Positions 10,055 to 26,921 of a stretch of 38,724 nt of DNA are shown here, one piece after another. The DNA is from a virus: positions 1 through 38,724 of IMG/VR virus record IMGVR_UViG_3300042987_001158; one strand, written 5' to 3'. Within the stretch, counting starts at the first letter, position 1; every line of letters begins with the position of its first letter. The translations under genes and the position numbers were made by a program. The notes under the pieces are model-generated. The model worked only from the letters and a program-made list of their open reading frames with translations, was not told where the DNA came from and did not search any database.

Positions 10055-10209
10055 AGAAGCAGAGCAAGTCGGACGCCAAGGTGTCCAAGGTGATGCGGGA
10101 GTACAAGGGCGGCCAGCTGCGGTCGTCCAGCGGCCAGAAGGTGACCAACCCGCGGCAAGCGCTGGCCATTGCGCTAAGCGAAGCCGGCAAAGCCAAGAAG
10201 AAGCCCTAG
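10051..10209 (+). CDS. Small basic protein resembling the DUF6496 family
   Basis: A 52-residue protein that starts in an ATGA overlap with the holin candidate. The product has KVSKVMREYKGGQLRSS and VTNPRQALAIALSEAGKAKK, the pattern of a small basic family common in phages and bacteria (DUF6496, from memory), whose function is not known. Its stop codon (10207-10209) overlaps the stop of the endolysin gene coming from the other strand (10206-10208), so the two transcription units converge with no spacer and no obvious terminator. Confidence 0.75.
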   Translation: MKKQSKSDAKVSKVMREYKGGQLRSSSGQKVTNPRQALAIALSEAGKAKKKP

Positions 10210-11189
10210 TAATCCCAGCGGACGCGGGGTTTGCCGGCACGCATCCCTAGATGCACAAAGCCTTTGGCAGCCCCGTAACCGACGCTGTACGACCACTCAC
10301 GGTCGCAGTAGCCCTGAACGTCGTAGGTGCTCACACCCATCACGTAGAAGTCCACGGCACCGGTGTCTTTGACGTCGTAGAGGTGCTCTGACTGCGAGGC
10401 GCCACCCACCTGTTTGTTGACCTCAGGGGGCCTGTAGCCGCTGGTGATGACCACCGGCTTGTCACCAAAGGCCTTACGCAGCTTCTCCAGGAACTGAGCC
10501 AGCACGATGGCCGTGTCGCACTGGTGCTGATGCTTGAAGCGACGTGCCTCCTGCTGCAGAGCAAACTCTCCGTAGCTGATGTGGGGGGTGATCATCAGCG
10601 AGAACGAGGATGCCGGCGTGAAGACAGGAGCTTTGGCAACGTCAGTCTTCTGGGCAATGATGTTCAGCAGTTTCTGGCTGTACATGGGGTCCGTGGCGTA
10701 CCCCTCTGACACCAGCTGCTTGGCTGCGGCGACCAGGTTCGGTGCGTTGTTGACCCCCTTGAACGACCGGTAGTCCTTGTACCAGCGGTCTACGAGGTAC
10801 GACACACAGGTCTGCAAGTCAGGGAAGTTGATAAACGACGCAGTGATTGTGATCCACTGGCCGTTGACGAACTCCTTGGTGGTGGTGGCAGTGCCGTCGC
10901 CTTTAATGCCAAAGTAGTTGTGGCGGGCAGAGGTGTGCTGGCCCCAGCCGGACTCCAAAGCCCACTGCGCAGCCACCAGTTCTGGGTATTTGGAGCCAGC
11001 GTTCTTGGCCGCGGCCATCACACCGGACCAGTCGTTGGCAACAGGTGGTTTGAGCGGTGGTGCGGCACGGTACAGCTCAGCAAAGTCCGCCAGCTGTTCA
11101 GAAGTAAGGGAGTTCTCAAGTGCAGTCCAAGCTGCGATCTGGTGAGACAGCTCCTTGTAGTGCTTGGCAGCGTCAGTCAGCCGGATCAT
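10206..11189 (-). CDS. Endolysin: glucosaminidase domain fused to M15-type peptidase domain
   Basis: A 327-residue protein when started at ATG 11189 (MIRLTDAAKHY); the frame continues upstream but lies inside the preceding gene. Residues about 50-190 resemble the FlgJ-type glucosaminidase fold, with the catalytic Glu79 in AAQWALESGWG and NYFGIKG. Residues about 215-327 resemble peptidase M15_3 with VITSGYRPPEVNKQVGG, SEHLYDVKDTGAVDFY and FVHLGM, which supply the zinc ligands His, Asp and His. The His-to-Asp spacing is longer than in the usual SxHxxGxAxD motif because of a short insertion. One domain cuts the glycan and the other the peptide, so this is probably the lysis enzyme. No signal peptide is visible, so release would need a holin. 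Confidence 0.88.
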   Translation of the reverse strand: MIRLTDAAKHYKELSHQIAAWTALENSLTSEQLADFAELYRAAPPLKPPVANDWSGVMAAAKNAGSKYPELVAAQWALESGWGQHTSARHNYFGIKGDGTATTTKEFVNGQWITITASFINFPDLQTCVSYLVDRWYKDYRSFKGVNNAPNLVAAAKQLVSEGYATDPMYSQKLLNIIAQKTDVAKAPVFTPASSFSLMITPHISYGEFALQQEARRFKHQHQCDTAIVLAQFLEKLRKAFGDKPVVITSGYRPPEVNKQVGGASQSEHLYDVKDTGAVDFYVMGVSTYDVQGYCDREWSYSVGYGAAKGFVHLGMRAGKPRVRWDY

Positions 11190-11433
11190 TCGACAGCACG
11201 GGGTCTTTGGGGAAGATCTGGACGGCCTTCGCCTCAAAGGGAAGACGTTCCCAGACGTCGCATTGGATGGCGACATCCCAAGCGTAGTCAGCAGTCTGGG
11301 CAAAGACGACGGTCTGGAAGGAGCCTTTCTCTTTGGTGCCGTCCTGACCGATGAACACACCAGGCAGTCGGATCACCCATGCCCGGGGGCGGATGGGTGG
11401 ATCAAGGAGCTGTGGCGGGGATCCAGGTTCCAT
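11173..11433 (-). CDS. Hypothetical 86-residue protein between terminase and endolysin
   Basis: The start at ATG 11433 has GGAGG two bases upstream and overlaps the 3' end of the large terminase gene by about 30 bases; the 3' end overlaps the endolysin start by 17 bases. The product contains PRAWVIRLPGVFIGQDGTKEKG and DYAWDVAIQCDVWERLPFEAKAV split over a compact alpha/beta-looking chain. No domain is recognised and no membrane segment is present. Its tight overlaps on both sides support real translation. Confidence 0.7.
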   Translation of the reverse strand: MEPGSPPQLLDPPIRPRAWVIRLPGVFIGQDGTKEKGSFQTVVFAQTADYAWDVAIQCDVWERLPFEAKAVQIFPKDPVLSNDPAD

Positions 11434-13138
11434 GGCCTCCGGTGCGTGGGACCTCCGCAAGAGAAACGCCAAGAAGTTGAGCATCGAGAGCGCCTTGGAT
11501 GTTCCCCATGTATGCCTCCAGTTCTAGATCCCAGAGTTCCGACTGTCGTTCCTTGATCGCTCTGTCTTCATCAATGGCGAGCGACTCGTTCCAATACTGG
11601 ATGGCACCGGCCAGGGCGTCGAGACGGTCGTCGTGCTGGAGACAGCCCTTGTCCACGGTGATGTGGGTGAGCTGGTGGAAGAGCTGATAGGCCAGCCGCT
11701 TCTCGATGGCGTCGTCATCCCTGCCCTGAGAATCGTTTTCAACGACTGAGCGGTTGACGATAAGCCGGTGCTGGTTCATGACCGGCTCCAGGGCGTTAAT
11801 GATGCGCCGTTCCTTCTGCACGTTGCTGCGCACCGGCTCAATGGTGCAGGGGTGATGCACCTGCAGATAGGGCTTGAGCAGGTTTTCCAGCATCCCTTGG
11901 CCAAACTGGTCCTCCAGAAGAATCAAATTGACCTTGTGGCGCTTGGCAGCCTTGGCAATGGCTTCAAGAACGTTGTCGCTGTAGCCGTCGCGGTGGGCGC
12001 CGACCTCCAGCAGGTACAGGTTTCCGTTGAGATGGGCCACGATGGCGTACGACGTCTCGTCAGAACCCTTGCCAGAGGGGTCAACGAACATCACACAGCC
12101 CTGGAAGGGCAGCCAATCGCCGTGGATGTACGCCGGACGGTGGTAGTAGTCGCCTGAGAAGCCCACAGCGGGCAAGTCGGTAATGCGGTACTCGGCACCA
12201 CCCGACCAAACCAGCTTCTCGGGGGCGTGATCGGACACCTCAAGCACCATGAGGTCGGAGAGCTTGAGTGGAAACCGCTCCAGATCCGACAGTGAGGTGT
12301 CCAGTTGAAACTGAAGGGCAAACGCAGAGCGTCCATAGGACGCTTCACGCTCCATCAGGTCGATCTCGGAGAAACGGTTGGGGTCTGTCGGCTTGTTTTG
12401 GTTGCCGGTGCAGTCCCGCAGGATGACTGGAGCCAGCGCTTCGCCGTATTTCTCGGGCTTTTCGGGGTACCTGGCAGGCCAGATGCGGCAGTCGTACCCC
12501 CGCAGCCGCAGTTTGTTGTAGATCGACTCCTCGGTTTGGGGTGTACCGAGGAACATGACGTCGCCACCGGGCTTGAGGATGGCGTTGAACTCACCCACAC
12601 AGCCCAGCAGCTTCTCCCGCATGCTCACGGTCCAACTGGTGTTGGGTACTTCGACGTCGTCCGGCAGGATTAGATCGGCACGGGAGCCCGTCAGCTGGCC
12701 AAAGATGCCCACAGACTTGACTGAAGGCGACTGATCAGGGACTGCAGGCCGCACGTCGAAGCGGTTGGCCGCAGATCGCTGTTCATCACGGTCCGGCTCC
12801 AAGCATTGGAGCAGCGGCATCTCACGAATCAGGCGGATGCAGAACTGTGCAAAGTCATCGGCCCGGGTTTTGGAGGCCGACACCACCATGATTTTCTTTT
12901 GGGGATCGTTGCGTAGCAGCCAGAGCGTGTAGGCCGCGGCCATCCATGACTTTCCGACTCCACGGAATGCCTCAACAATGCGGCGTTTGGAGCCGTGCTG
13001 CATGTAGTGCGCAATGTCCAGCTGCACCGGAGTGGGATCTGGCAAGCCAAGATGCCGCCAGACGACCACCAAGAAGTACCGGAAATCGTCTTTGAAGGGT
13101 TCAGGTAATAGCTGCCATGCGGCTTGCTGTCTTGACAT
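11402..13138 (-). CDS. terL: Terminase large subunit (T7 gp19-like DNA packaging ATPase/nuclease)
   Basis: A 578-residue protein. It uses ATP to drive genome packaging through the portal and cuts concatemers. The Walker A motif AFRGVGKS is at about residues 57-64, after the VQLDIAHYMQHG segment typical of T7-like terminases. A Walker B-like ADLILPDDVEV follows, and the C-terminal nuclease begins with CVMFVDPSGKGSDETSYAI. The ATG at 13138 is chosen over a TTG three bases upstream; no good Shine-Dalgarno is seen. It is on the minus strand, opposite to the other structural genes, which differs from T7. Confidence 0.95.
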   Translation of the reverse strand: MSRQQAAWQLLPEPFKDDFRYFLVVVWRHLGLPDPTPVQLDIAHYMQHGSKRRIVEAFRGVGKSWMAAAYTLWLLRNDPQKKIMVVSASKTRADDFAQFCIRLIREMPLLQCLEPDRDEQRSAANRFDVRPAVPDQSPSVKSVGIFGQLTGSRADLILPDDVEVPNTSWTVSMREKLLGCVGEFNAILKPGGDVMFLGTPQTEESIYNKLRLRGYDCRIWPARYPEKPEKYGEALAPVILRDCTGNQNKPTDPNRFSEIDLMEREASYGRSAFALQFQLDTSLSDLERFPLKLSDLMVLEVSDHAPEKLVWSGGAEYRITDLPAVGFSGDYYHRPAYIHGDWLPFQGCVMFVDPSGKGSDETSYAIVAHLNGNLYLLEVGAHRDGYSDNVLEAIAKAAKRHKVNLILLEDQFGQGMLENLLKPYLQVHHPCTIEPVRSNVQKERRIINALEPVMNQHRLIVNRSVVENDSQGRDDDAIEKRLAYQLFHQLTHITVDKGCLQHDDRLDALAGAIQYWNESLAIDEDRAIKERQSELWDLELEAYMGNIQGALDAQLLGVSLAEVPRTGGHGTWIPATAP

Positions 13139-13147
13139 CAACGTGCG

Positions 13148-13408
13148 TCAGAAGTCATTGCGACTTAACGATGCAAGGGGCGGGGCAACAGGCGTGCCGT
13201 CTTGGTTGTACTGGGGTTTGATGGGACCGATGTAGTTCGGGCCAACCTTGTAATCCACGCAGGCGCCAGAGGCAAGACTGGTGGCATAGTCCGTCAGGAA
13301 CTCGTCCAGATCGGCGTAGGGCACCTCACGGGTGCGGTTCATGTCGTACATCTTGGCGACAGCGCCAGGTACAAACTCGTCAGGGACAGTGATTGTGATG
13401 TCAGCCAT
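13148..13408 (-). CDS. Hypothetical 86-residue acidic protein upstream of terL
   Basis: The gene starts at ATG 13408 with GGAGG about eight bases upstream and ends ten bases before terL. The product begins MADITITVPDEFVPGAVAKM and contains DLDEFLTDYATSLASGACVDY and a proline-rich tail (PIKPQYNQDGTPVAPPL). It resembles small phage proteins that open with a short beta strand of the DITITVPD type, but I cannot assign a function. Its place between a fibre-like gene and terL suggests a virion or packaging accessory role. Confidence 0.8.
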   Translation of the reverse strand: MADITITVPDEFVPGAVAKMYDMNRTREVPYADLDEFLTDYATSLASGACVDYKVGPNYIGPIKPQYNQDGTPVAPPLASLSRNDF

Positions 13409-13428
13409 GAGAAGATCCTCCGTGTGGT

Positions 13429-14358
13429 TTAGGTGGCGATGAGGCCAAGGTCACGCATCCGCGCAAGCAGTGCGTTGAGTTGAGTAATTGCGGTGGCAGC
13501 ATCTGTTGCATCGGCCACAGCCGCAGGTTGTACTACTGGAGTTGCGTTGTAGAAACCTATTTTTTGCGTGGTAGCCGTGCCGATCTTGAATCCTGCACCA
13601 CCAGTAACAATGTTGGCCGCGTTAAGATAAACGTCCTTGTCAAACTGGTTGTAGTTGCTACCGATAATTTGATACCGGGTGCTTCCGCTGTATAAGCCGA
13701 CTGAACGAACGATTCCTGGACTTGCGGCCTCGGTGCCAATACGGAACTCACTGCCGTACCACTCCAGCTTGCCAAGCTCGTAGTTGGTGCTGCTGGTGTA
13801 TGTGTTGTAGATCCGGAAGGCTTGTGCGTTAGTGCCGTTGCGCTGGGCGAGGGTGTTGGCGGCGTCGCGGAATAGACGCACGTCATAAGTACCAGTGTCG
13901 GTATACCCGTTGGACCATCCGATTGCGCAACCGCTTTGCACAAAGAATCCCGTGGACGTGGCAAAGCGGTAATACTCACCTGCGGACGTGAGATTAATCC
14001 CTAAAGAATTTGTATCAACGCCTCTAAGAGTAATAAACGTAGAAGATGGAGCTGGAAATATAGCGCCGCCATTTGATGCAATACGGAATTGACTCGTCCC
14101 ATTCACCTGCAGGTCCAGCAGGTTCCCCGCAAAACCACTCGCAGCATTAACACCGAAGCCTGTGCCGCTGGTGCTCCACGCTGTTGATGTGGTGCCAGTC
14201 GGCTCGATCAGCACCTGAGGCTTGGTGGTCGTTGCCGTGCCACCCGTGAACCACGTGCCAGTGAACGCCTTTGCCGGGCTCGATGCGGTGGCGTTGTAGC
14301 TGTTCACGACAGCATCGCCGCCACCGCCACCGTTCAAACCAATGTTGAGGTTGTCCAT
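13429..14358 (-). CDS. Tail fibre-like structural protein
   Basis: A 309-residue protein on the minus strand. The N-terminus is Gly/Asn-rich (MDNLNIGLNGGGGGDAVVNS). The body is rich in Gly, Ser, Thr and Asn, as in beta-helical fibres, and contains YNTYTSSTNYELGKLEWYG and EFRIGTEAASPGIVRSVGL, a pattern I recognise from phage fibre-type proteins. The C-terminus (KIGFYNATPVVQPAAVADATD, then TQLNALLARMRDLGLIAT) is also frequent at the ends of phage structural proteins and may be a trimerising helix. The start ATG 14358 follows an AAGGAAG-type site. It may add a second receptor specificity to the fibres coded at 6465-9230. Confidence 0.8.
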   Translation of the reverse strand: MDNLNIGLNGGGGGDAVVNSYNATASSPAKAFTGTWFTGGTATTTKPQVLIEPTGTTSTAWSTSGTGFGVNAASGFAGNLLDLQVNGTSQFRIASNGGAIFPAPSSTFITLRGVDTNSLGINLTSAGEYYRFATSTGFFVQSGCAIGWSNGYTDTGTYDVRLFRDAANTLAQRNGTNAQAFRIYNTYTSSTNYELGKLEWYGSEFRIGTEAASPGIVRSVGLYSGSTRYQIIGSNYNQFDKDVYLNAANIVTGGAGFKIGTATTQKIGFYNATPVVQPAAVADATDAATAITQLNALLARMRDLGLIAT

Positions 14359-14372
14359 AGTTGACTTCCTTC

Positions 14373-14702
14373 TTATTCGGCGGTGGACAAAGCAACCTTG
14401 AAGACGACACTGGGCGTGCCACCAGACAGGCTGACCAGTCGTCCACGGATGTAAGGCACCGGTACCTGCACCAAGCTGTACCCAAACGTGCCGTTGGCCG
14501 TCAGGGTGAAGTCGGTGTTGCCGGAATTAAGGTTGAACCAGTTGGCGGCATCCAAGGAGCCTTCTAACCGGATCACGACATTGGTGCCAATGGACGACAC
14601 CGTCACCTGAAACAGGACGTTGTCTTGAATGCCAAGGGCTTGGAAGTCAGTCGTCCCGGCAGACGTAAGAGTGCCGAGGGTGGTGACGGCTGGGGCGGAC
14701 AT
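14373..14702 (-). CDS. Small beta-rich putative virion protein
   Basis: A 109-residue protein that begins MSAPAVTTLGTLTSAGTTDF. The sequence is nearly all predicted beta strand, with VIRLEGSLDAANWFNLN and a repeated hydrophobic/polar alternation, which is the look of small phage decoration or tail-attached proteins. It lies between small terminase and the fibre-like gene in one minus-strand unit. The exact role is unknown. Confidence 0.75.
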   Translation of the reverse strand: MSAPAVTTLGTLTSAGTTDFQALGIQDNVLFQVTVSSIGTNVVIRLEGSLDAANWFNLNSGNTDFTLTANGTFGYSLVQVPVPYIRGRLVSLSGGTPSVVFKVALSTAE

Positions 14703-14704
14703 AA

Positions 14705-14944
14705 CTAGGCCGTCCGTTTACGGGGCTGCATTGCTACCACCTTATCCAGATCTGGCAACGAAGCCACCAGATCCCCAAACGACGTCCCCTCTGCTGGTTG
14801 GGCACTGATGGCGTTGTCCTTCAGAAACTGCCGCAAGATGCTCAGTTCAGCAGCTGAGATGGACCCATCATCCAATTTGGCTTTCAGGTGTTCAGCCAAG
14901 CCGGCATGAAGGTCTGAGAACAAGCTGTCGGTACTACGGGTCAT
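14705..14944 (-). CDS. terS: Terminase small subunit candidate (T7 gp18-like)
   Basis: A 79-residue protein from ATG 14944, with GGAGG about eight bases upstream; a longer version exists but has no such site. The product contains LHAGLAEHLKAKLDDGSISAAELSILRQFLKDNAI, split over two helices, which matches the small terminase pattern of T7-like phages (a helical domain followed by AELS...FLKDN). Small terminase recognises DNA for packaging. Its place upstream of terL in the same unit supports the call, although two other genes and a small unknown lie between them. Confidence 0.8.
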   Translation of the reverse strand: MTRSTDSLFSDLHAGLAEHLKAKLDDGSISAAELSILRQFLKDNAISAQPAEGTSFGDLVASLPDLDKVVAMQPRKRTA

Positions 14945-15072
14945 ACGACGACCCTCCGTGAAATGGAGTGTCCTAAGCCTACCGACGTCCCAGGTCACCC
15001 TTCACACAAGGGACACCGGGAAAGAAAGGGAGGTCGCTCACCCACCACGGCAGCAACCCCCAGCCCCTGAAA

Positions 15073-15103
15073 AGGTGGGCTGCTCAAACCGTAGCAGGTG
15101 CCC
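15073..15103 (-). terminator. Candidate terminator after the winged-helix gene
   Basis: On the minus strand, directly after the stop codon, GGGC and CTGCT can pair with AGCAG and CCC around an 8-base loop, followed by CCTTTTC. The stem is bulged and the T run is short, so this is moderate evidence only. Confidence 0.4.
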
Positions 15104-15105
15104 TT

Positions 15106-15444
15106 TCACTCCAAGGCCTGCTGGAACAGCTTCCACAGGTACCCACGCTTCGCCAAACCCCCGCAGGAGACGACGTACGGGTTGGGAAGGATCACAGAAG
15201 CATTGCTGGCTGGGTCCCTCCACTTGGCCAGCAGCAGGCCCTTCCTGAGCCTGCTGACGCAGTTGATCGCCTGCTTGTAGTTCATCCCCAGCTGCGTGGC
15301 CAGCTCCCTCACCGTGACCTCCGCATACCCACTCCGTGGATCCACATTCGCCACCACAGCCCAAAACACCTGCAGGTCCGACCCCGACAGCTCCCTGTCC
15401 CGCAGCTTGCTGACAACTTGCTTCGCGTCCTGCAGGTGAACCAT
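15106..15444 (-). CDS. Winged-helix DNA-binding protein
   Basis: A 112-residue protein, the first gene of the minus-strand unit. ATG 15444 is preceded by GGGAGAGG at a good distance; a GTG at 15477 could extend it by 11 residues. Residues about 20-70 look like a winged helix: LSGSDLQVFWAVVANVD, then VTVRELATQLGMNYKQAINCV and SRLRKGLLL. Such proteins act as transcription regulators or, in RepL-like cases, as replication initiators. It faces the 740-bp non-coding region, so a role in controlling that region or initiating replication is plausible but unproven. Confidence 0.8.
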   Translation of the reverse strand: MVHLQDAKQVVSKLRDRELSGSDLQVFWAVVANVDPRSGYAEVTVRELATQLGMNYKQAINCVSRLRKGLLLAKWRDPASNASVILPNPYVVSCGGLAKRGYLWKLFQQALE

Positions 15445-15690
15445 GGCAAACCTCTCCCGAGGCCATTTAGTCTTCACAAGTCAGCTCCTGACTGACGGCC
15501 CCTATTCCTGCCTGCTGCCTCGGTCCTGACCCGACCTAGGTGGCAGAAGGGGTTTTGCATTCGGAATTTAACCCCCCCTCCATTCCACGACTACCTACCC
15601 CCCTCTCCACCACTGGCCCGTTTTGGCCTCACTCTTAGATCTCTCATCAGTACCCTCCCCTCCTAGTGGAAATTCCTGCCCACCTGCCCA

Positions 15691-17738: not shown

Positions 17739-18021
17739 CACCAGGGACATGGCAACAGTGCGCCATGAAGTGTTGAACGTTTTGTTCAACATGTTTCCGT
17801 TAGCGCAAACCAAACCCTCACTCCTCTCTGACCTACGTCCCGTGTTCAAGGAACGGGACAAGGTGTGGCTTACTGATGCCATCGCTGAACAACTCGTCGT
17901 TCTGTCCCACGCTGGTTTGATCCGACCATCAGGTGGTGGGTACACCCTCACTGAAAGGGGCAGGAAGGACCGTGAAGCAGCACGCAAGCTGTTCCACCAA
18001 CACACAGGACTGAAGGCATGA
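17728..18021 (+). CDS. Putative winged-helix protein, 97 residues
   Basis: ATG 17728 follows an AAAGAAGAGAG purine stretch. The product has VRHEVLNVLFNMFPLAQ at the start and, in the second half, AIAEQLVVLSHAGLIRPSGG followed by YTLTERGRKDREAARKL. The L..L...GLI......YTLTERG pattern is the helix-plus-wing signature of PadR-like and related winged-helix regulators. I infer a DNA-binding early regulator. The stop overlaps the next start in ATGA. Confidence 0.7.
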   Translation: MNSDTRDMATVRHEVLNVLFNMFPLAQTKPSLLSDLRPVFKERDKVWLTDAIAEQLVVLSHAGLIRPSGGGYTLTERGRKDREAARKLFHQHTGLKA

Positions 18022-18317
18022 CACAGAGGCGCATAGCGAGGTTTGACGAGCAGGCTGAGTCGATCACCCACGACAGACAGGCCGACTACGGAGACCCTCG
18101 TGTGTCGTTCGACCGCATTGCCTTGATGTGGTCAGCCATCACAGGAGCAGACATCACTGCTGCCCAGGTGGCACACATGATGATTGCGCTGAAGCTAAGC
18201 AGGCTTCAGCACCAACCCAACCACCTTGATTCCCTCGTTGACATCGTTGGCTATGCAAGATGTGCAGTCCTCGTCGGACCCGAGTACGACGACACCACAG
18301 ACGGACAACCCTTCTGA
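18018..18317 (+). CDS. DUF6378-like phage protein
   Basis: A 99-residue protein with ITHDRQADYGDPRVSFDRIA, LMWSAITGADITAAQVAHMM and IALKLSRLQHQPNHLDSLVD followed by IVGYA. This is the pattern of a small phage family (DUF6378, from memory) with an all-helical fold; function is not established. The gene starts in an ATGA overlap with the winged-helix gene and its 3' part is overlapped by the next gene. Confidence 0.82.
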   Translation: MTQRRIARFDEQAESITHDRQADYGDPRVSFDRIALMWSAITGADITAAQVAHMMIALKLSRLQHQPNHLDSLVDIVGYARCAVLVGPEYDDTTDGQPF

Positions 18318-19343: not shown

Positions 19344-20456
19344 ATGACAAGGAAACAACGGCAAGGTATACGACAACGAGGTAACAGCTGGCTGGTTGAT
19401 GTAACTGTCAACGGCAAGCGTCGCACCAGAACCTGCACCAGCTACGACGAGGCAGTCATTGCCCGCTTGGAGATGGAGGCAGAGCTGCGTGGCAGCACTC
19501 GTCAACCATCAGCCACATCCACTCCCACCTTTGATAGCTGGACCTTGGCCAAGGCCTATCGGGTCACGCTTGAGATGCGCTGGGCCAACACCAAGAACGA
19601 AGTCAAGGCTGCAGCCTGTGCCAAGGAAGCCATCGACTTCCTCGGTGCTGAGCGCACCCTGGACAGCATCAGCACCAACGACATCGACGACTTCGTCAAG
19701 CACCTACGTGCGAAGAAGAACGGTCCGGCCACCATCAACCGCAAGCTGGCCAGCCTGTCAGCCATGTTCACCGATGCACTGGACCGTGGTGGCTGCGGCA
19801 AGAAGCCACGCATCATCCGCCAGCCAGAACCGACGCACCGTGTCCGCTACCTCAGCCCCGAGGAAGAGCAGCTGCTGCTGACCCTGCTTCAGCAGTGGGC
19901 ACAGGTCGTCGTGATGGAAGCGGTCATCGTCCTGCTGGACACCGGCATGCGGGTCGGGGAACTACTGGCCATGCAGACCAGGGACATCGACCTGAAGGCC
20001 AACATCATCAGCATCTGGCAGAACAAGGGCGACCTGCCCAGGTCGGTACCCATGACCGACAGGGTGAGAACCATTATCAGCAGCAGGCTGGAACGCAGCC
20101 GCGGCCTGGTGTTCTTCGACCTTGGCCGGGAAACCCTGCGGTACTACTGGGATCGGGCACGCTCAGCCATGGGGCTGGATGACGACGACCAGTTCGTGCC
20201 TCATGCCCTGCGTCACACCTGTGCCACCCGCTTGGTGCAGAGCGGTGTGTCGTTGTTCATCGTGCAGAAGATCCTCGGCCACAGCTCCATCACGGTGACT
20301 GAGCGGTACAGCCACCTGTCGGACCGTGAACTGCGCGGTGCCATCGACGTACTACAAGGGAAAGTGATCCCCGCTGTGCAACGTGTTGCAGATGTTGCGG
20401 GGAATGTTGCAGCACCAGGAGTAAGCAAGATCCCTGCCACTCCTGTACTCCCTTGA
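19344..20456 (+). CDS. int: Tyrosine-family site-specific integrase
   Basis: A 370-residue protein. The N-terminal residues 8-50 look like an arm-type DNA-binding strand set (RQRGNSWLVDVTVNGKRRT), followed by a helical core-binding domain ending near residue 150. The catalytic domain has Arg203 in DTGMRVGELL, His287, Arg290 and His291 in PHALRHTC, His313 in LGHSS and Tyr322 in TERYSHL, so the catalytic set is complete. The enzyme would recombine the tRNA-Leu attP just downstream with the host tRNA gene. Integrase genes in this position, upstream of the RNA polymerase, are known in marine cyanopodoviruses such as P-SSP7; integration there has been little seen experimentally, so the lifestyle remains open. 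Confidence 0.95.
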   Translation: MTRKQRQGIRQRGNSWLVDVTVNGKRRTRTCTSYDEAVIARLEMEAELRGSTRQPSATSTPTFDSWTLAKAYRVTLEMRWANTKNEVKAAACAKEAIDFLGAERTLDSISTNDIDDFVKHLRAKKNGPATINRKLASLSAMFTDALDRGGCGKKPRIIRQPEPTHRVRYLSPEEEQLLLTLLQQWAQVVVMEAVIVLLDTGMRVGELLAMQTRDIDLKANIISIWQNKGDLPRSVPMTDRVRTIISSRLERSRGLVFFDLGRETLRYYWDRARSAMGLDDDDQFVPHALRHTCATRLVQSGVSLFIVQKILGHSSITVTERYSHLSDRELRGAIDVLQGKVIPAVQRVADVAGNVAAPGVSKIPATPVLP

Positions 20457-20462
20457 TTTGAT

Positions 20463-20515
20463 TGGTGCCCGGAGCCGGACTCGAACCGGCACGTCTTACG
20501 ACGAGGGATTTTAAG
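20463..20515 (-). other. attP: Putative attP: 3' half of a tRNA-Leu(UAA) gene
   Basis: Read on the minus strand, this 53-base stretch begins at the anticodon loop CTTAAAA (anticodon TAA), continues with the 3' anticodon stem TCCCT, a class II variable arm with stem CGTC/GACG, the T arm GCCGG-TTCGAGT-CCGGC, the 3' acceptor strand TCCGGGC and ACCA. The 5' half of a tRNA is missing: no GCCCGGA acceptor strand or matching AGGGA anticodon stem is found beyond it. A truncated tRNA next to an integrase is the mark of an attachment site, and integration would rebuild the host gene. P-SSP7 is reported to carry a 42-bp tRNA-Leu match in the same position. Confidence 0.85.
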
Positions 20516-20570
20516 TCGGTCCTTTGTCCTGCTCTGGGCCCTACCCATAACCCATTGATCTGCAATCTCA

Positions 20571-23009
20571 ATGCAGGACCAACCTGAGACAGTCGATCTG
20601 TCCCTTGATCGGAGTTGTTGCCGCACCCTTGAAGATCAGCTGGCCCTTGAAGCCGAGATGTTCGACATCGGCAGGGACCGGGTGCTGTTCATGAACAACC
20701 GCTATGTCACTTGCCGCATGGAATCGCTGAGCCGTTACGGCACAGCCCTCACCGTGGCAGGGGTAGACAAGCTGATCCGTCAGATCAACTACCACTGCCG
20801 TCGCATGGAGAAAGGCGAGGCAGGCCGCAGCTACGCACTGCTTGGGCCCATGGCTGAAATGCCTGCCCGCAAGGTGGCAGCCGTCGCTGTGCGGGTGGTG
20901 ATGGACCAGATCACACAGACCACGAGGCTGCACCCACTGGCTCATGAGGTGGGCCAGATGCTGTGGATGGAGACCATGCTCCATCGGGCTACCAAGTGGG
21001 AGCTGAAGCTGCACAAGCGGGTACCCAAACGCCGTCGCCTGAAGGTGCAAGACATCACCCGCATGCAGAACAGCCAGATGTGGGATGCCCGGGAACGACT
21101 GGCCACCGGTGTGTTCTTGGTGCAGCTGATCGCCACCCACACCGGCCTTATCGAGGTCTACATGGAGCGGCAAGGCATCAAGACCGTGCGCATGGTGCGG
21201 GCCACTGATGGCTGCATGCAGTGGATCAAAGGCGTTACCTGCACCCAAGAGCTGCTGTCGCCACTGATCATGCCGATGGTGTACCCAGCCAAGACTTGGA
21301 CCACACCACTGGATGGTGGGTACTACACCCCTGAGGTGTGGGGCAACACGCTGATCAAGACCGACAGCGAGATCGTCGCCAAAGAAACCAAGGGAGATGA
21401 GCCGTTCATCCGTGCCGCCAACATGCAGCAGCAGGTGGCATGGCAAGTCAACAACTGGATGCTGCACCAGCTGCACTACGCCTGGGACCGCAGCTTGGAG
21501 ATCGGCAAGCTCATGCCACGTGAGGGGTGGGAGGTACCGCCCTACCCCAAGCACCTACCGGACGACCACCCGGACATTACCCAGTGGAAGTTCAACGCAC
21601 GGCAGATCCATGAGAAGAACGACAACGCCAAGCACCGCAAGGTGGCCACTGCCAAGCAGCTGTGGCTGGCCGAGAAGTTCACCGGTGAGCGGGCCCTCTA
21701 CTACCCAATGCAGCTGGACTTCAGGGGTAGGTATTACTACCGACCACCGTTTCTGAATCCACAGGCCAACGACATCGGTCGCTCCCTGCTGCAGTTCGCA
21801 GAAGGCACACCACTACGCAGCAAGACCGAAGCCAACTGGCTGAAGATCCACGGCGCCAACCTCTACGGCCACGGCAAGCTGACCTGGAACGCACGGCTGG
21901 ACTGGGCCAACGACAACGCCGCGGCCATCAACGCTGCAGGCAATGACCCCTGGTCGTACTCCGACTTCTGGACCAAGGCCTCAGACCCGTGGCAGTTCCT
22001 TGCCTTCTGCCGTGCCCACTACCAGTGGCACCAAGCGGCACTCAAAGGCGACACCTACGTCTGTCAGCTCCCGGTCCAACTGGACTGCACCTGCTCTGGC
22101 ATCCAGCACTACGCCGCCTTCCTGCGCAACGAAGGCATGGCCAGCCTGGTCAACCTGCTGCCATCGGAGAAACCACAGGACATCTACAACGCCCTGATCG
22201 ACAGGGTGCTGGACATCCTGCGCAACGACGACAACCCCGACGCTGCCAAGTGGTTGAGCCTGCAGCCTGACCGCACGCTGGGCAAGAACATCGTCATGAC
22301 CCTGCCGTACTCGGCCAGTCGTCGTGCCGTGTTCGGCTTCTGCCAGCAGTGGGCATGCGAGCGAGGCACCGACCTCTACGGCATGGACTGCTGGGCCTTC
22401 AAGCGGGGTGCCATTGGCACCTGCCACTACATGGCCACCATCCTGTACCGGGAGACGTCGGACCTGATCGGCCCTGCACGGGATGCCATGCAATGGTTCA
22501 AGCGGGTAGGCCGTGTTGCTGGCGAGAACAACATCGCCCTGCACTGGCACTCACCCTCTGGCCTGTACGTGCGGCAGACCTACGAGAACTACAGGTACAC
22601 CCGCATCAAACTGCACCACCTGTCGACCGTGCCCATGGACTTGCGGTCGTATCACATCCCGGCTGGCCTGGACCCCATGCGCATGGGCAATGGGCTCAGC
22701 CCCAACGTCGTCCATTCCATGGACGCCAGCCACATGGCACTGGCCACCATCCGTGCCATGGAAGGTGGGGTCCGCAACCTTGGAGGAATCCATGACTGCT
22801 TCAGCACGACCCCCGCCGAGATGGAGACCCTGCGTGATGCAGTGCGCTCCAGCTTCGCTGATCTCTACAGCCACGACTGGTACACCACCATCACCGATGA
22901 GCTGCTGGCCCAGATCCCTGAGGAGCTGAGGTCAACCCTGCCACCCCGTCCCATGCTGGGCGGGCTGGACGTCAACCACGTTCGCCAAGCCGACTATTTC
23001 ATCTCATGA
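20571..23009 (+). CDS. T7-type single-subunit DNA-directed RNA polymerase
   Basis: An 812-residue polymerase that transcribes phage middle and late genes. The palm and fingers motifs match the T7 enzyme: Asp383 in LDFRGRYYYRP (T7 Asp537), Lys572 and Tyr580 in GKNIVMTLPYS (T7 Lys631 and Tyr639, with the same spacing of eight) and Asp742 in GGIHDCF (T7 Asp812). The N-terminal part is shorter than in T7 (883 residues in total), as in other cyanopodoviruses. The start is ATG 20571, about 55 bases after attP, and no strong ribosome-binding site is seen. If the phage integrated at attP, this gene would be separated from the integrase by the whole prophage. The stop overlaps the SSB start. Confidence 0.97.
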   Translation: MQDQPETVDLSLDRSCCRTLEDQLALEAEMFDIGRDRVLFMNNRYVTCRMESLSRYGTALTVAGVDKLIRQINYHCRRMEKGEAGRSYALLGPMAEMPARKVAAVAVRVVMDQITQTTRLHPLAHEVGQMLWMETMLHRATKWELKLHKRVPKRRRLKVQDITRMQNSQMWDARERLATGVFLVQLIATHTGLIEVYMERQGIKTVRMVRATDGCMQWIKGVTCTQELLSPLIMPMVYPAKTWTTPLDGGYYTPEVWGNTLIKTDSEIVAKETKGDEPFIRAANMQQQVAWQVNNWMLHQLHYAWDRSLEIGKLMPREGWEVPPYPKHLPDDHPDITQWKFNARQIHEKNDNAKHRKVATAKQLWLAEKFTGERALYYPMQLDFRGRYYYRPPFLNPQANDIGRSLLQFAEGTPLRSKTEANWLKIHGANLYGHGKLTWNARLDWANDNAAAINAAGNDPWSYSDFWTKASDPWQFLAFCRAHYQWHQAALKGDTYVCQLPVQLDCTCSGIQHYAAFLRNEGMASLVNLLPSEKPQDIYNALIDRVLDILRNDDNPDAAKWLSLQPDRTLGKNIVMTLPYSASRRAVFGFCQQWACERGTDLYGMDCWAFKRGAIGTCHYMATILYRETSDLIGPARDAMQWFKRVGRVAGENNIALHWHSPSGLYVRQTYENYRYTRIKLHHLSTVPMDLRSYHIPAGLDPMRMGNGLSPNVVHSMDASHMALATIRAMEGGVRNLGGIHDCFSTTPAEMETLRDAVRSSFADLYSHDWYTTITDELLAQIPEELRSTLPPRPMLGGLDVNHVRQADYFIS

Positions 23010-23644
23010 GCAACTTCCAGATCATCGACAAGATCCGCATCACCAGCCCGACCTGCCGCCTGCAGTACCCCAAGCTCATCGAACCCGACACCAAGTTCAA
23101 CCCTGAGGGTGTGTACCGAGTGACCGGTGTCATCGACGCAGCCGATGCAGACGCCATCTCCACCCAGCTGGATGAACTGCTGAACCGCCATAAGGAATCC
23201 CTTAAGGCGCAGTCACCCACCACCAAGTTCAAGCTGGCCGACCTGCCCTACGGCTTTGAAGAACTGGACGGCAAGCCCAGCTTCGTGGTCAAGGCCAAGC
23301 AGAAAGCAAGCGGCATGGACCGTGACGGTCGTCGTTGGACCGCAGCCCCTGCCCTGTTCGATGCCAAGGGTGTGCCCATCAAGGACCGCAACCAGCTGAA
23401 GGACATGTGGTCCGGCACTGTCGGTCGCATCAGCTTCGACGCTTGCCCCTTCTACCAAGCAGCCATTGGTGCCGGGATTACCCTGCGTCTCCGGGCTGTA
23501 CAGATCATCAGTCTGGTGGAAGGAGGCGGCAGTGCCGAGAGCTACGGGTTCGGGGAAGAGGACGGCTTCTCCACCACGACGGACACCCCGGCGGTCCCGT
23601 TCGACAGCAGCACCAGCATCCCCTTCGACGACGGCGACTTCTAA
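23006..23644 (+). CDS. ssb: Single-stranded DNA-binding protein, T7 gp2.5-like
   Basis: A 212-residue protein, close to T7 gp2.5 (232). It coats single-stranded DNA and recruits replication partners. The OB-fold body includes LQYPKLIEPDTKFNPEGVYR, DLPYGFEELDGKPSFVVKAK and ITLRLRAVQIISLVEGGG. The C-terminus is acidic and ends with IPFDDGDF, the acidic tail with a terminal Phe that in T7 contacts the polymerase and helicase. It starts in an ATGA overlap with the polymerase gene, and its last 113 bases are shared with the endonuclease gene in another frame. Because no phage DNA polymerase is found, the tail may instead contact host enzymes; this is inference. Confidence 0.9.
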   Translation: MSNFQIIDKIRITSPTCRLQYPKLIEPDTKFNPEGVYRVTGVIDAADADAISTQLDELLNRHKESLKAQSPTTKFKLADLPYGFEELDGKPSFVVKAKQKASGMDRDGRRWTAAPALFDAKGVPIKDRNQLKDMWSGTVGRISFDACPFYQAAIGAGITLRLRAVQIISLVEGGGSAESYGFGEEDGFSTTTDTPAVPFDSSTSIPFDDGDF

Positions 23645-24014
23645 GTTCCGCTCAAAGTTTGAGCAGCACGTCGCCGGCTCATTAAACAAACGGGGCCTTC
23701 CCTTTCACTACGAGGGGCGGGCCCTGCCCTACACCATCCAAGCCACGTACACCCCTGACTTCTGCTTGCCGAACGGGGTGATCGTGGAAACCAAAGGTCT
23801 CTTCCCCACCGAGGACCGCCGCAAGATGCTCGCCGTTAAGGCGCAGTACCCACAGCTGGACATCCGCATCTGCTTCCAGAAGGCAGACGCAAAGCTGTCA
23901 CGCAGACCACGGGCACTGACCTACGCACAGTGGGCACAGCGGCATGGCTTCCCGTGGTGTGAAGGATCCATACCTTCTGCCTGGTTCGATGCCGTCCAAG
24001 TTCCTGAAGCATGA
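23532..24014 (+). CDS. Endonuclease I (Holliday junction resolvase), T7 gp3-like
   Basis: A 160-residue protein if started at GTG 23532, which has a perfect AGGAGG five bases upstream (23521-23526); no ATG exists in a suitable place. It resolves branched DNA and degrades host DNA. The T7 catalytic set is present: Glu44 in SKFEQH, Asp76 in YTPDFCLPNG, Glu86 and Lys88 in VETKG, with the same Asp-Glu-Lys spacing as in T7 (10 and 2). The first ~37 residues are Arg/Pro/Ser/Thr-rich and lie entirely within the SSB coding region in another frame. The 3' end overlaps the primase-helicase start by about 26 bases. Confidence 0.9.
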   Translation: MPRATGSGKRTASPPRRTPRRSRSTAAPASPSTTATSKFRSKFEQHVAGSLNKRGLPFHYEGRALPYTIQATYTPDFCLPNGVIVETKGLFPTEDRRKMLAVKAQYPQLDIRICFQKADAKLSRRPRALTYAQWAQRHGFPWCEGSIPSAWFDAVQVPEA

Positions 24015-25611
24015 GCCGTGTCCCCAGTGCAACAGCAAGGACAACGCCGCCCGCTTTGACGACGGTCACCTCCACTGCTTCGGCTGCGGCTACCAAGAAC
24101 AACCCACCACCCAAGAGAAGGCGCACCCGCCACGTATGCCAGTCGCCGTCAAACCACCACCCGTCACACCGCTGATCGAGTTCACCACCATCAAGGAACT
24201 CAGCAAGCGCGGCATCACCGCCGACACTTGCAAGCACTTCAACTACGGCACCAGCACCCACCAAGGGCAGCCGGTGCAGGTGGCTGAGTACCGCAACCAG
24301 AAGGGCGACGTTGTTGCCCAGCACGTCCGCTTCCCCGACAAGAAGTTCAGGTGGCTGGGCAGCACCACCGACATGCAGCTGTGGGGCCAGCACCTCTGGC
24401 GACAGGGTCATGGCTCTGGCAGCAACCTGTTCGTGGTGGTGACCGAAGGCGAGATCGACGCCATGTCGGTCAGCCAGGTGCAAGGCAACAAGTTCCCTGT
24501 GGTGTCCCTGCCCAACGGGGCACAGTCGGCCAAGAAGTACCTGGCTGCCAACGCTGCATGGCTGGGTCAGTTCAGCCGCATCGTGCTGTGCTTCGACAAC
24601 GACGAGCCCGGTCGTCAGGCAGCAGAAGAAGCGTTGACCGTCCTGCCCTTGGGCAAGGTGGCCATCTGCCATCTGCCTCGCAAGGACGCCAACGAGATGC
24701 TGCAGGCCGGTGAAGGCCAGCAGCTACGCGACCTGCTGTGGAAGGCCACACCGTCCAGGCCAGACGGCATCGTCAACGCCAGCGAACTGTGGGATGAACT
24801 GATCCGTCCTGGTGCCACCGCTGTCGCCAACTACCCATGGCCACAGCTGGATCGCATGACCCACGGCTTCCGCAAAGGGGAGATGACGACGCTGGCCGCT
24901 GGATCCGGCATCGGCAAGTCGTCCATCTGCCGTCACATCGCCCACCACTTCCTATGCCATGGCTTGCGCATTGGCTACATCGCCCTTGAAGAGTCCATCC
25001 AACGGACCATGCAGGGCATCGTCGGGCTGGAGCTGGGCAAGCCCATCCACCTGGACCCCACGCTCGCCACCCAAGACGAGGTGCGCACCGGCTTTGACCG
25101 GGTGTTTGGCACTGGTCGCTGCTACTTGTACGACCACTTCGGATCCATGGATCCGGATCACCTGCTCAACAAGATCCGCTACCTGGCCGATGGCGAAGGC
25201 GCTGACCTCGTCATCCTTGACCACCTCACCATCGTCATCAGCGGCCTTGCTGATCTGGACGAGCGTCGTGCCATCGACGTCACCTGCACCAAGCTCCGAC
25301 AGGTGGTGGAACAGACTGGTGTCGGCCTGATCCTGGTCTCCCACCTAAAGCGACCGGAAGGCCGCGGCCATGAGGAAGGGGCGCAGACCTCCCTGTCGCA
25401 GCTGCGTGGCAGCCATGCCATCGCTCAGCTCAGCGACATGGTGATCGGCGCTGAACGCAACCAGCAGGGTGACCCTGCAGAACGCAACGAGCTGCAGCTA
25501 CGGGTCCTAAAGAACCGCTTCAGCGGACAGACAGGACTGGTGGACAAGCTGCTCTACGACCAGGAAACCGGCCGCTTGGTCGTGCCCATAAGTACCTACT
25601 TCGGAACCTGA
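23989..25611 (+). CDS. DNA primase-helicase, T7 gp4-like
   Basis: A 540-residue bifunctional enzyme. ATG 23989 is chosen because it places the zinc motif at the usual distance; an ATG at 23944 is further inside the endonuclease gene. The zinc-binding domain has Cys11, Cys14, Cys30 and Cys33 (CPQC...CFGC). The TOPRIM part shows VTEGEIDAMSVSQ and VLCFDNDEPGRQAA. The RecA-like helicase has Walker A GSGIGKSS at 305-312, the LEESIQRT segment, Walker B DLVILDHL and SHLKRPEGRGHEEG. It unwinds DNA and primes the lagging strand. It lies where T7 gene 4 lies, but the DNA polymerase gene that should follow is missing. Confidence 0.96.
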   Translation: MPSKFLKHEPCPQCNSKDNAARFDDGHLHCFGCGYQEQPTTQEKAHPPRMPVAVKPPPVTPLIEFTTIKELSKRGITADTCKHFNYGTSTHQGQPVQVAEYRNQKGDVVAQHVRFPDKKFRWLGSTTDMQLWGQHLWRQGHGSGSNLFVVVTEGEIDAMSVSQVQGNKFPVVSLPNGAQSAKKYLAANAAWLGQFSRIVLCFDNDEPGRQAAEEALTVLPLGKVAICHLPRKDANEMLQAGEGQQLRDLLWKATPSRPDGIVNASELWDELIRPGATAVANYPWPQLDRMTHGFRKGEMTTLAAGSGIGKSSICRHIAHHFLCHGLRIGYIALEESIQRTMQGIVGLELGKPIHLDPTLATQDEVRTGFDRVFGTGRCYLYDHFGSMDPDHLLNKIRYLADGEGADLVILDHLTIVISGLADLDERRAIDVTCTKLRQVVEQTGVGLILVSHLKRPEGRGHEEGAQTSLSQLRGSHAIAQLSDMVIGAERNQQGDPAERNELQLRVLKNRFSGQTGLVDKLLYDQETGRLVVPISTYFGT

Positions 25612-25844
25612 TGGACTGCCCACAATGCGCGGCCGACAAAAGCCGCATCCGAGTGCAACTGTCCCGGCATGACACCGTCGAATCCATCGTGCGTCGCCGC
25701 ATCTGCCTTGACTGCGGCTACGCCTGGTACACCTGCGAGGTTGAGCTGCCTGAGAGATCAACCCGCTGGGTGTGCGACGCCGACACCAACCACTACTCCG
25801 CCATTGAGCGGCTGCCCAAGTACCGCCGTCTGTTCTTCGCATGA
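25611..25844 (+). CDS. Stand-alone NrdR-like zinc ribbon protein
   Basis: A 77-residue protein. Cys3, Cys6, Cys32 and Cys35 (MDCPQC ... RRRICLDCGYAWYTCE) match the zinc-finger half of NrdR, the repressor of ribonucleotide reductase genes, including the RRR-x-CLDCG element that contacts DNA. The ATP-cone domain of NrdR is absent, and the C-terminus (TNHYSAIERLPKYRRLFF) is different. No reductase gene is present in the phage. It may bind host nrd promoters, or act as a general zinc-ribbon adaptor in replication; both are inferred. It starts in a TGATG overlap with the primase-helicase. Confidence 0.75.
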   Translation: MDCPQCAADKSRIRVQLSRHDTVESIVRRRICLDCGYAWYTCEVELPERSTRWVCDADTNHYSAIERLPKYRRLFFA

Positions 25845-26161
25845 AAACTGAACGCTTCGTCACCCCTGGCCTGCGCATTGAATACCAGTGGGACCGTTGG
25901 AACGGTGCGCTGTGGCTGGCATGGAAGCCTCATGTCTCCATGTGCTTCCGCGACACCAAGGAACTGATCCGCTTTTGCGCATGGCCCATCAAGACGCCCA
26001 CCGGCGACCTGCTGCGTGGCTGGGTCAGGGGTCTTGTGGATCAGCAACCTGCCATCGACGCACCACAACCGGCGGAATCGTTATCCGATGAGCTACTAGC
26101 CACCGGCTTTGGCCCTGAATGCCACGACGTCGACAACGACAACACCCGCACCGTGATCTGA
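25841..26161 (+). CDS. Hypothetical 106-residue protein in the replication block
   Basis: Starts in an ATGA overlap with the zinc ribbon gene. The product begins MKTERFVTPGLRIEYQWDRW and continues NGALWLAWKPHVSMCFRDTK; it is Trp-rich in the first half, and the last 35 residues are acidic and probably disordered. No domain recognised. It occupies part of the place where T7-like phages carry the DNA polymerase gene but is far too short to be one. Confidence 0.75.
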   Translation: MKTERFVTPGLRIEYQWDRWNGALWLAWKPHVSMCFRDTKELIRFCAWPIKTPTGDLLRGWVRGLVDQQPAIDAPQPAESLSDELLATGFGPECHDVDNDNTRTVI

Positions 26162-26162
26162 C

Positions 26163-26921
26163 ATGACCCTGCTCATCGACGCTGACTGGCTGGTTCATTC
26201 CGCCTGCGCTGCCTGCGAGGTGGACATCCGCTGGGATGAATGGATCAACACCCTGCACCTGGAGCAGGCCGACGTGAAGGACTTCATCACGATGCGGCTG
26301 GACTACTGGCGCGACCTGCTGTCTGACCAGCAGGTGGTGATGTGCTTCTCCGACTACCCCACCTTCAGGCATGACCTGTACCAGGAGTACAAGGCCAACC
26401 GGGTGGGCAAGCGCAAGCCCCTTGGCATGCGTGACGTCAGGCGCTGGGTTGAGCAGAGCTACGAGACCCGCACCTGTGTCGGCCTTGAAGCCGACGACGT
26501 CATGGGCCTGCTCGCCACCAACGGCGCCTATCCCAACCCGGTGACCGTCTCGGTGGACAAGGACATGCGCACAGTCCCCGGTTCACTGCTGGCCAAGGAA
26601 GAACTGGAGACTGTGTCGTTGCTGGAAGCCAACCGCACATGGATGAAGCAAGCCCTGACCGGTGACACCAGCGACAACTACCAAGGCCTCAAGGGCGTGG
26701 GTCCTGTCGGTGCCGAGAAGATCCTTGGTGCTGCTACGACACTGCCCGACATGTGGGAAAAGGTGGTGGCTGCCTACCAGAAAGCAGGCCTGACCTTGGC
26801 TGATGCTTTATTCAATGCACGCATGGCCCGCATCCTGCGTGCCGGGGACTATGACTTCAAGACGGGCGAAGTCCAGCTCTGGGATCCCGACCGTGACCCT
26901 GCAATGAAAATCAATGGATGA
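26163..26921 (+). CDS. 5'-3' exonuclease, T7 gp6-like (FEN/PIN family)
   Basis: A 252-residue nuclease that removes RNA primers and degrades host DNA. Metal-binding acidic residues appear in the expected order: LLIDADWLVHS at the start, CFSDYPTFRHDLYQEYKANR, GLEADDVMGLLA, VSVDKDMRTVPG and TGDTSDNYQGLKGVGPVGAE, the last being the helix-hairpin-helix DNA-binding element. The length is a little below T7 gp6 (300). It starts one base after the preceding stop codon and its end overlaps the next small gene. Confidence 0.92.
   Translation: MTLLIDADWLVHSACAACEVDIRWDEWINTLHLEQADVKDFITMRLDYWRDLLSDQQVVMCFSDYPTFRHDLYQEYKANRVGKRKPLGMRDVRRWVEQSYETRTCVGLEADDVMGLLATNGAYPNPVTVSVDKDMRTVPGSLLAKEELETVSLLEANRTWMKQALTGDTSDNYQGLKGVGPVGAEKILGAATTLPDMWEKVVAAYQKAGLTLADALFNARMARILRAGDYDFKTGEVQLWDPDRDPAMKING

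What the first reader, a model, noticed from the sequence alone, without database searches (positions are those of the whole stretch)
23006..26921. Complete T7-like genome with no DNA polymerase gene
The window closes on itself through a 127-base overlap, so absence is meaningful. The replication block runs SSB, endonuclease I, primase-helicase, zinc ribbon, 106-residue unknown, exonuclease. In T7 and in most cyanopodoviruses a family A DNA polymerase of 550-700 residues lies between primase-helicase and exonuclease; here only two short genes lie there, and no other unassigned frame in the genome exceeds about 190 residues. The phage must recruit a host polymerase, probably through SSB, helicase or one of the unknowns. 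From memory, a cyanopodovirus lineage without this gene has been described, so the novelty may lie in the details.
Basis: partly seen in the sequence, partly recalled or inferred. Interest (0 to 1): 0.75.

Follow-up and report, generated by a model that had tools for sequence, protein, structure and literature searches.

The report
Polymerase-less T7-like cyanophage, MPP-C type
This is an assembly-closed T7-like phage genome, probably of a cyanobacterial phage, that has no DNA polymerase gene and must copy its DNA with the host's polymerase; such phages (clade MPP-C) were reported in 2022, but comparison with some 200 relatives shows that phages without the polymerase also lack the helicase tail that holds the polymerase in T7.

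Summary
In detail: no family A, B, C or Y DNA polymerase profile matches the genome, and only two small genes lie between primase-helicase (23944-25611) and exonuclease (26163-26921). It is not new. The nearest named relatives are Prochlorococcus phages P-SCSP1/P-SCSP2, the MPP-C clade described in 2022 as lacking a DNA polymerase gene; the window falls inside that clade. Eighty-five distinct loci share the junction, so it is not an assembly gap. Three points go beyond the papers searched. (1) None of 85 polymerase-less helicases has the acidic, aromatic-ended tail that tethers T7 gp4 to its polymerase; 62 of 92 polymerase-encoding relatives do, and 83 of 92 have an acidic tail. (2) A second polymerase-less lineage (Krakvirus S39C11 group) shows the same; structural-gene trees separate the two (AU p=9e-5), replication genes do not decide. 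(3) The 25611 gene is an NrdR-type zinc ribbon, in 11/20 polymerase-less and 0/23 polymerase-encoding genomes; ribonucleotide reductase is in 0/20 and 13/23. The 25841 gene is in only 12/65 loci of the lineage and also in a polymerase-encoding phage, so it is unlikely to recruit the host polymerase. Use of a host polymerase is inferred.

The parts
20571..23009 (+). T7-type single-subunit RNA polymerase (812 aa)
   Evidence: PF00940 2.9e-77, phrog_414 5.5e-177; 47-48% to P-SCSP1 phages
23006..23644 (+). gp2.5-type ssDNA-binding protein; keeps an acidic C-terminal tail ending ..SIPFDDGDF
   Evidence: phrog_112 4.9e-30, PF21265 6.4e-7; tails compared
23619..24014 (+). endonuclease I (start codon uncertain)
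   Evidence: PF05367 3.3e-36
23944..25611 (+). gp4-type primase-helicase; ends ..TGRLVVPISTYFGT, without the acidic tail of T7 gp4
   Evidence: phrog_239 9.1e-183; aligned to T7 gp4 (6n7i, 566 aa) up to T7 residue 543 = residue 546 here; tail survey
25582..25608 (+). last nine codons of the helicase (VPISTYFGT), in place of the acidic tail; form [VI]P[MLI]xx[YF]F in 62 of 65 polymerase-less relatives of this lineage
   Evidence: DNA read
25611..25844 (+). 77-aa NrdR-type zinc ribbon, without the ATP-cone of NrdR
   Evidence: PF22811 9.6e-8; in 11/20 polymerase-less and 0/23 polymerase-encoding genomes
25841..26161 (+). 106-aa protein of unknown function (phrog_37139); model of four strands and helices, conserved C-terminal part predicted with low confidence
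   Evidence: no PDB fold match, only homologous cyanophage proteins
26163..26921 (+). 5'-3' exonuclease (T7 gp6 type)
   Evidence: PF02739 1.6e-12, phrog_107 2.1e-58
19344..20456 (+). tyrosine integrase upstream of the RNA polymerase gene
   Evidence: PF00589 1.1e-29

Best explanation
The window is an assembly-closed genome of a T7-like phage of the MPP-C type, probably a phage of a picocyanobacterium. It encodes its own RNA polymerase, SSB, endonuclease I, primase-helicase and exonuclease but no DNA polymerase. Most likely the phage helicase and primase open and prime the fork and a host polymerase (Pol III holoenzyme more likely than Pol I) makes the DNA. The absence of the polymerase and of the helicase's acidic polymerase-docking tail is shown across the lineage; use of the host enzyme, and which one, is inferred. 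With no phage polymerase to hold, the helicase lost the tail that tethers gp5 in T7 (inferred from comparison), while the SSB kept its acidic aromatic-ended tail, the likeliest remaining contact with other replication proteins (inferred). In about half of these phages the vacated interval holds an NrdR-type zinc ribbon; since none of 20 genomes tested encodes ribonucleotide reductase, it may compete with host NrdR and relieve repression of host nucleotide synthesis (speculative).
For: No A, B, C or Y family polymerase profile in the genome. Nearest named relatives are the polymerase-less MPP-C phages, and the window groups inside them. In 85 distinct loci the helicase-exonuclease gap is -135 to 1411 bp without a polymerase; in polymerase-encoding loci it is 1712 to 3751 bp. 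PF00476 is absent from the related records searched whole: 13 IMG/VR records plus P-SCSP1a, P-SCSP2, S39C11 and S08C159 and 23 more, some of them fragments. Strict tail: 0/85 polymerase-less against 62/92 polymerase-encoding helicases; net charge of -2 or less: 6/85 against 83/92. T7 gp4 acidic tails bind gp5, and removing 17 residues cuts processivity from 17 to about 5 kb (PMC12593628; also PMC5997990). SSB tails end F/W in 49/49 of this lineage. NrdR ribbon 11/20 against 0/23 genomes; ribonucleotide reductase 0/20 against 13/23. [quoted passage not shown]
Against: No experiment shows which polymerase is used. The tail association rests on few independent events: at best two polymerase losses, and the helicase-only and replication-gene trees do not reject a single one (AU p=0.84 and 0.13). 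About a third of polymerase-encoding helicases fail the strict tail test and 9 of 92 are not acidic, so the tail is not obligatory. One deletion could have removed both the polymerase gene and the helicase tail. The NrdR ribbon is absent from 9 of 20 polymerase-less genomes. No cyanobacterial genome contig carried a close relative, so the host is inferred from relatives only.
Confidence: 0.8

Rival explanations
1. The polymerase gene exists but was lost from the assembly between 25611 and 26163.
For: The window is a metagenome-derived virus record closed only by a 127-base overlap.
Against: The same junction without polymerase is seen in 85 distinct loci, in isolate genomes P-SCSP1a and P-SCSP2 and in whole relatives of 37-45 kb without PF00476. 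The frames at the junction overlap cleanly: the helicase stop TGA shares bases with the next ATG.
Confidence: 0.01
2. The phage encodes a DNA polymerase too divergent for current profiles.
For: Two frames of 1786 and 1119 aa are largely without profile matches; the MPP-C authors could not exclude this either (PMC9860041).
Against: Both lie in the virion block after tail tube B, where T7-like phages keep internal virion proteins; in the replication block only 77- and 106-aa frames are unassigned. A family A profile from phage polymerases run without filters finds nothing.
Confidence: 0.05
3. The 25841 protein (106 aa) or the zinc ribbon is the factor that recruits the host polymerase.
For: Both lie where the polymerase gene stands in relatives; the zinc ribbon is seen only in polymerase-less phages here.
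Against: The 25841 gene is in 12/65 and the ribbon in 36/65 loci of this lineage; 26/65 have neither. The 25841 family is also in polymerase-encoding S-CBP2 and siphovirus S-CBS3. The ribbon's nearest family is a transcription repressor domain.
Confidence: 0.06
4. The helicase tail was lost by the same deletion that removed the polymerase gene, not through relaxed selection after the partner was lost. (This bears on how the tail went, and is compatible with host polymerase use.)
For: The tail is coded by the last part of the gene just upstream of the polymerase position, so one deletion could take both.
Against: In the window's lineage the helicase ends in a conserved nine-residue form (62/65); both lineages show the loss, which would need two similar deletions if they are independent. 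Not decisive.
Confidence: 0.3

Closest known systems
MPP-C cyanopodoviruses P-SCSP1a-u and P-SCSP2 (Cai et al. 2022, PMC9860041)
   Same: T7-like gene order, own RNA polymerase, primase-helicase followed by exonuclease without DNA polymerase, terminase and capsid genes; best hits by RNA polymerase and helicase; window lies within the clade in trees
   Different: 38.6 kb here (about 60% GC) against 37.3-37.9 kb; extra zinc ribbon and 106-aa gene between helicase and exonuclease; integrase present (as in P-SCSP2, not annotated in P-SCSP1a); host unknown; only about 48-55% identity in replication proteins
Jalkavirus S08C159 (GU943031, Mediterranean deep chlorophyll maximum)
   Same: helicase directly followed by exonuclease, no polymerase; groups with P-SCSP2
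   Different: 10-kb fragment; nothing between the two genes
Krakvirus S39C11 and relatives (AP013549, L102-L127)
   Same: no DNA polymerase in whole records, helicase without acidic tail, zinc ribbon in about half
   Different: places beside polymerase-encoding P-RSP2 in the structural-gene tree; SSB tail has also lost its terminal aromatic residue (14/15)
T7 replisome (gp4, gp5, gp2.5)
   Same: gp4-type primase-helicase and gp2.5-type SSB with acidic tail
   Different: no gp5; helicase ends 9 residues after the anchor where T7 gp4 has 23 more residues..ESTDWSNDTDF
MPP-A/MPP-B/P-RSP2 cyanopodoviruses (Syn5, S-CBP2, P-SSP7, P-RSP2)
   Same: T7-like cyanophages with the same replication block
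   Different: all have family A polymerase, helicase tails ending ..DF, and a ribonucleotide reductase match

Membership tests
MPP-C cyanopodoviruses | No DNA polymerase gene | tested here: met
MPP-C cyanopodoviruses | Groups with P-SCSP1 and P-SCSP2 in core-gene trees, apart from MPP-A, MPP-B and P-RSP2 | tested here: met
   structural and replication concatenations: window inside the set of P-SCSP1a and P-SCSP2, support 88 and 100
MPP-C cyanopodoviruses | Nine core genes (exonuclease, primase-helicase, capsid, scaffold, portal, tail tubes A and B, TerL, TerS) | tested here: met
   TerS by PF11123 (DNA packaging protein) at 14708-14998 minus
MPP-C cyanopodoviruses | No auxiliary metabolic genes | tested here: inconclusive
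   no ribonucleotide reductase; no psbA, talC, thyX or hli family among the proteins scanned with Pfam, but not every small frame was scanned; a DUF6378 protein at 18018-18317 was not resolved
MPP-C cyanopodoviruses | Infects Prochlorococcus (all isolates on MED4) | not testable with these tools
   host unknown; no close relative in bacterial genome contigs
T7 gp4 primase-helicase | Zinc-binding domain, TOPRIM primase and DnaB-like helicase | tested here: met
   PF03796, PF21268 and PF13155 above cut-off; T7 gp4 aligned over residues 17-546, zinc-binding cysteines included
T7 gp4 primase-helicase | Acidic C-terminal tail that contacts gp5 | tested here: not met
   ends VPISTYFGT, net charge 0
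NrdR repressor | N-terminal zinc ribbon | tested here: met
   PF22811 9.6e-8, above cut-off
NrdR repressor | ATP-cone domain | tested here: not met
   77-aa protein; Pfam reports no ATP-cone; NrdR is a zinc ribbon plus ATP-cone (PMC12051234)

The most novel reading that the evidence does not exclude
Loss of the DNA polymerase in T7-like phages happened at least twice and each time went with a rebuilt replisome: the helicase lost its polymerase-docking tail, and a zinc-ribbon fragment of the host repressor NrdR often took the vacated place, raising host nucleotide supply in phages that also lack ribonucleotide reductase.
Probability: 0.3. Interest if true: 0.65.

Novelty: new member of a known kind. 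Interest (0 to 1): 0.45.

Why it matters
How MPP-C phages, reported as abundant in the surface ocean, copy DNA without a polymerase is an open question stated in their 2022 description. The absence here is already known. The comparison adds testable handles: a helicase without the T7 docking tail, an SSB that keeps its tail, a second polymerase-less lineage, and an NrdR-like zinc ribbon restricted, in this sample, to polymerase-less phages. These narrow which phage proteins could meet a host polymerase and argue against the first candidate (the 25841 gene).

Tried and rejected
Assembly gap: rejected, because 85 loci and two isolates share the junction. Polymerase elsewhere in the genome: none found. 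25841 protein as recruiter: rejected as an obligate factor; its AlphaFold model (pLDDT 75, pTM 0.57) has no PDB match at E <= 0.001, and its best viral matches are its own homologues. The 627-aa Krakvirus protein after the exonuclease as a hidden polymerase: no Pfam match above cut-off. Independence of the two losses from the helicase alone: monophyly not rejected, so concatenations were built. Host from bacterial genome contigs: only three distant gammaproteobacterial hits. A clamp-binding reading of the new helicase C-terminus was considered and dropped: it lacks the usual glutamine and nothing here tests it.
Full report
Observation. The record is 38,724 bases with identical first and last 127 bases, and a 1119-codon frame continues across the join. 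The replication block reads RNA polymerase, SSB, endonuclease I, primase-helicase, zinc ribbon, 106-aa protein, exonuclease. Searches for DNA polymerase families A, C, B and Y found none in the genome, with positive controls. A family A profile built from polymerases of the related phages and run without speed filters over all six frames gave no hit better than E=4.9.

What it is. The best named matches to the helicase (54%) and RNA polymerase (48%) are the Prochlorococcus phages P-SCSP1a-u, followed for the helicase by P-SCSP2 and Jalkavirus S08C159. The P-SCSP phages are the MPP-C clade, published as lacking a DNA polymerase gene (PMC9860041). In P-SCSP1a, P-SCSP2 and S08C159 helicase and exonuclease are adjacent. 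Concatenated trees place the window between P-SCSP1a and P-SCSP2, i.e. inside MPP-C. The absence is therefore real and already known.

Not an artefact. I collected 322 sequences, the window included (and annotated records), and scored helicase, exonuclease and polymerase. After removing duplicates, 85 loci have helicase and exonuclease on one strand within 5 kb and no polymerase; 92 have a polymerase. The gap is -135 to 1411 bp in the first and 1712 to 3751 bp in the second. Whole-record searches for PF00476 were negative in the near relatives tested, including the Krakvirus group, and positive in ten named polymerase-encoding phages, T7 included. Some of the negative records are fragments.

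Helicase tail. [quoted passage not shown] PMC5997990). The window's helicase aligns with T7 gp4 to T7 residue 543 of 566, but has only nine residues more. Across the survey, a tail with net charge of -2 or less, at least five residues and a final F, W or Y occurs in 0 of 85 polymerase-less and 62 of 92 polymerase-encoding helicases. By charge alone it is 6 of 85 and 83 of 92. T7, S-CBP2, Syn5, P-SSP7, P-RSP2, CRP-125, HTVC031P, HTVC109P and Pasto all end in F; EXVC018P ends EGTFDE. The polymerase-less members of the window's lineage instead end in [VI]P[MLI]xx[YF]F plus at most a few residues in 62 of 65. The criterion was set after seeing the first tails; the loci were added later and agree. 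Sequence counts are not independent events.

Two lineages. Polymerase-less phages fall into the MPP-C-like group and the Krakvirus S39C11 group. Structural genes (2312 columns) place the latter beside polymerase-encoding P-RSP2 and reject a single polymerase-less clade (AU p=9.3e-5). Replication genes give the same count of two changes but do not reject one clade (p=0.13), nor does the helicase alone (p=0.84). Two independent losses are likely, not proven. The SSB differs: an acidic tail with a final aromatic residue is kept in 49 of 49 of the MPP-C-like set, while 14 of 15 of the Krakvirus set have lost the aromatic residue.

Genes in the gap. The 25841 gene is present in 12 of 65 polymerase-less loci of the lineage and in S-CBP2 (which has a polymerase), S-CBS3 (a siphovirus) and S39C11. 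It is thus neither necessary for nor specific to this way of replicating. The 25611 gene is an NrdR-type zinc ribbon without the ATP-cone. It is in 36 of 65 and 10 of 20 loci of the two polymerase-less groups and 0 of 92 polymerase-encoding loci, and by PF22811 in 11 of 20 against 0 of 23 genomes (P-SCSP2's hit is below the curated cut-off and at another place). Ribonucleotide reductase (PF02867) is in 0 of 20 against 13 of 23 (three of the 13 are below the cut-off). Fisher tests are and ignore relatedness. In NrdR each zinc ribbon binds half of an NrdR box and the ATP-cone senses ATP and dATP (PMC12051234); a ribbon alone could compete for the boxes. That is speculation.

How it works. Shown: no recognisable phage polymerase; helicase without docking tail; SSB tail retained in this lineage. 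Inferred: a host polymerase extends primers made by the phage primase. I favour Pol III holoenzyme (about 0.6) over Pol I (about 0.3), on general knowledge that Pol III is the processive host replicase. Not shown: any contact between phage and host replication proteins.

Novelty. A new, divergent member of MPP-C. I found no report of the helicase-tail pattern, the Krakvirus loss or the zinc-ribbon association in the open-access papers searched, which does not exclude one elsewhere.

Noticed in passing
20463-20522, minus strand: About 60 bases just downstream of the integrase read as the 3' part of a leucine tRNA with anticodon TAA, ending in CCA; ARAGORN finds no whole tRNA. A likely attP and a clue to the host. 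An exact 27-mer of it was not found in the other fetched loci.
   Followed up: partly
25611-25844: NrdR-type zinc ribbon without ATP-cone, in both polymerase-less lineages and in none of the polymerase-encoding phages tested.
   Followed up: partly
L005/L322 (AP013549) and L102-L127: Krakvirus S39C11 group: a second set of polymerase-less T7-like phages, apparently an independent loss, with SSB tails that mostly lost the terminal aromatic residue.
   Followed up: yes
10206-15477, minus strand: Opposite-strand block with a glucosaminidase plus M15 peptidase lysin, large and small terminase and a head-fibre-like protein.
   Followed up: no
36345-38724 joined to 1-1101: 1119-aa protein across the join, probably an internal virion protein; its C-terminal part carries papain-like (C70/C39) and DPBB domains.
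   Followed up: no
18018-18317: DUF6378 protein (PF19905 3.1e-27) in the early region; function not resolved.
   Followed up: no
25841-26161: 106-aa cyanophage protein family with a strongly conserved C-terminal stretch LSxELLATGFGPECHDVDNDNT that AlphaFold leaves unstructured.
   Followed up: partly
L016, L018, L021: The 106-aa family also occurs on viral contigs where no helicase, RNA polymerase or exonuclease of this type was found in the fetched stretch, so it seems to move between phage types.
   Followed up: no
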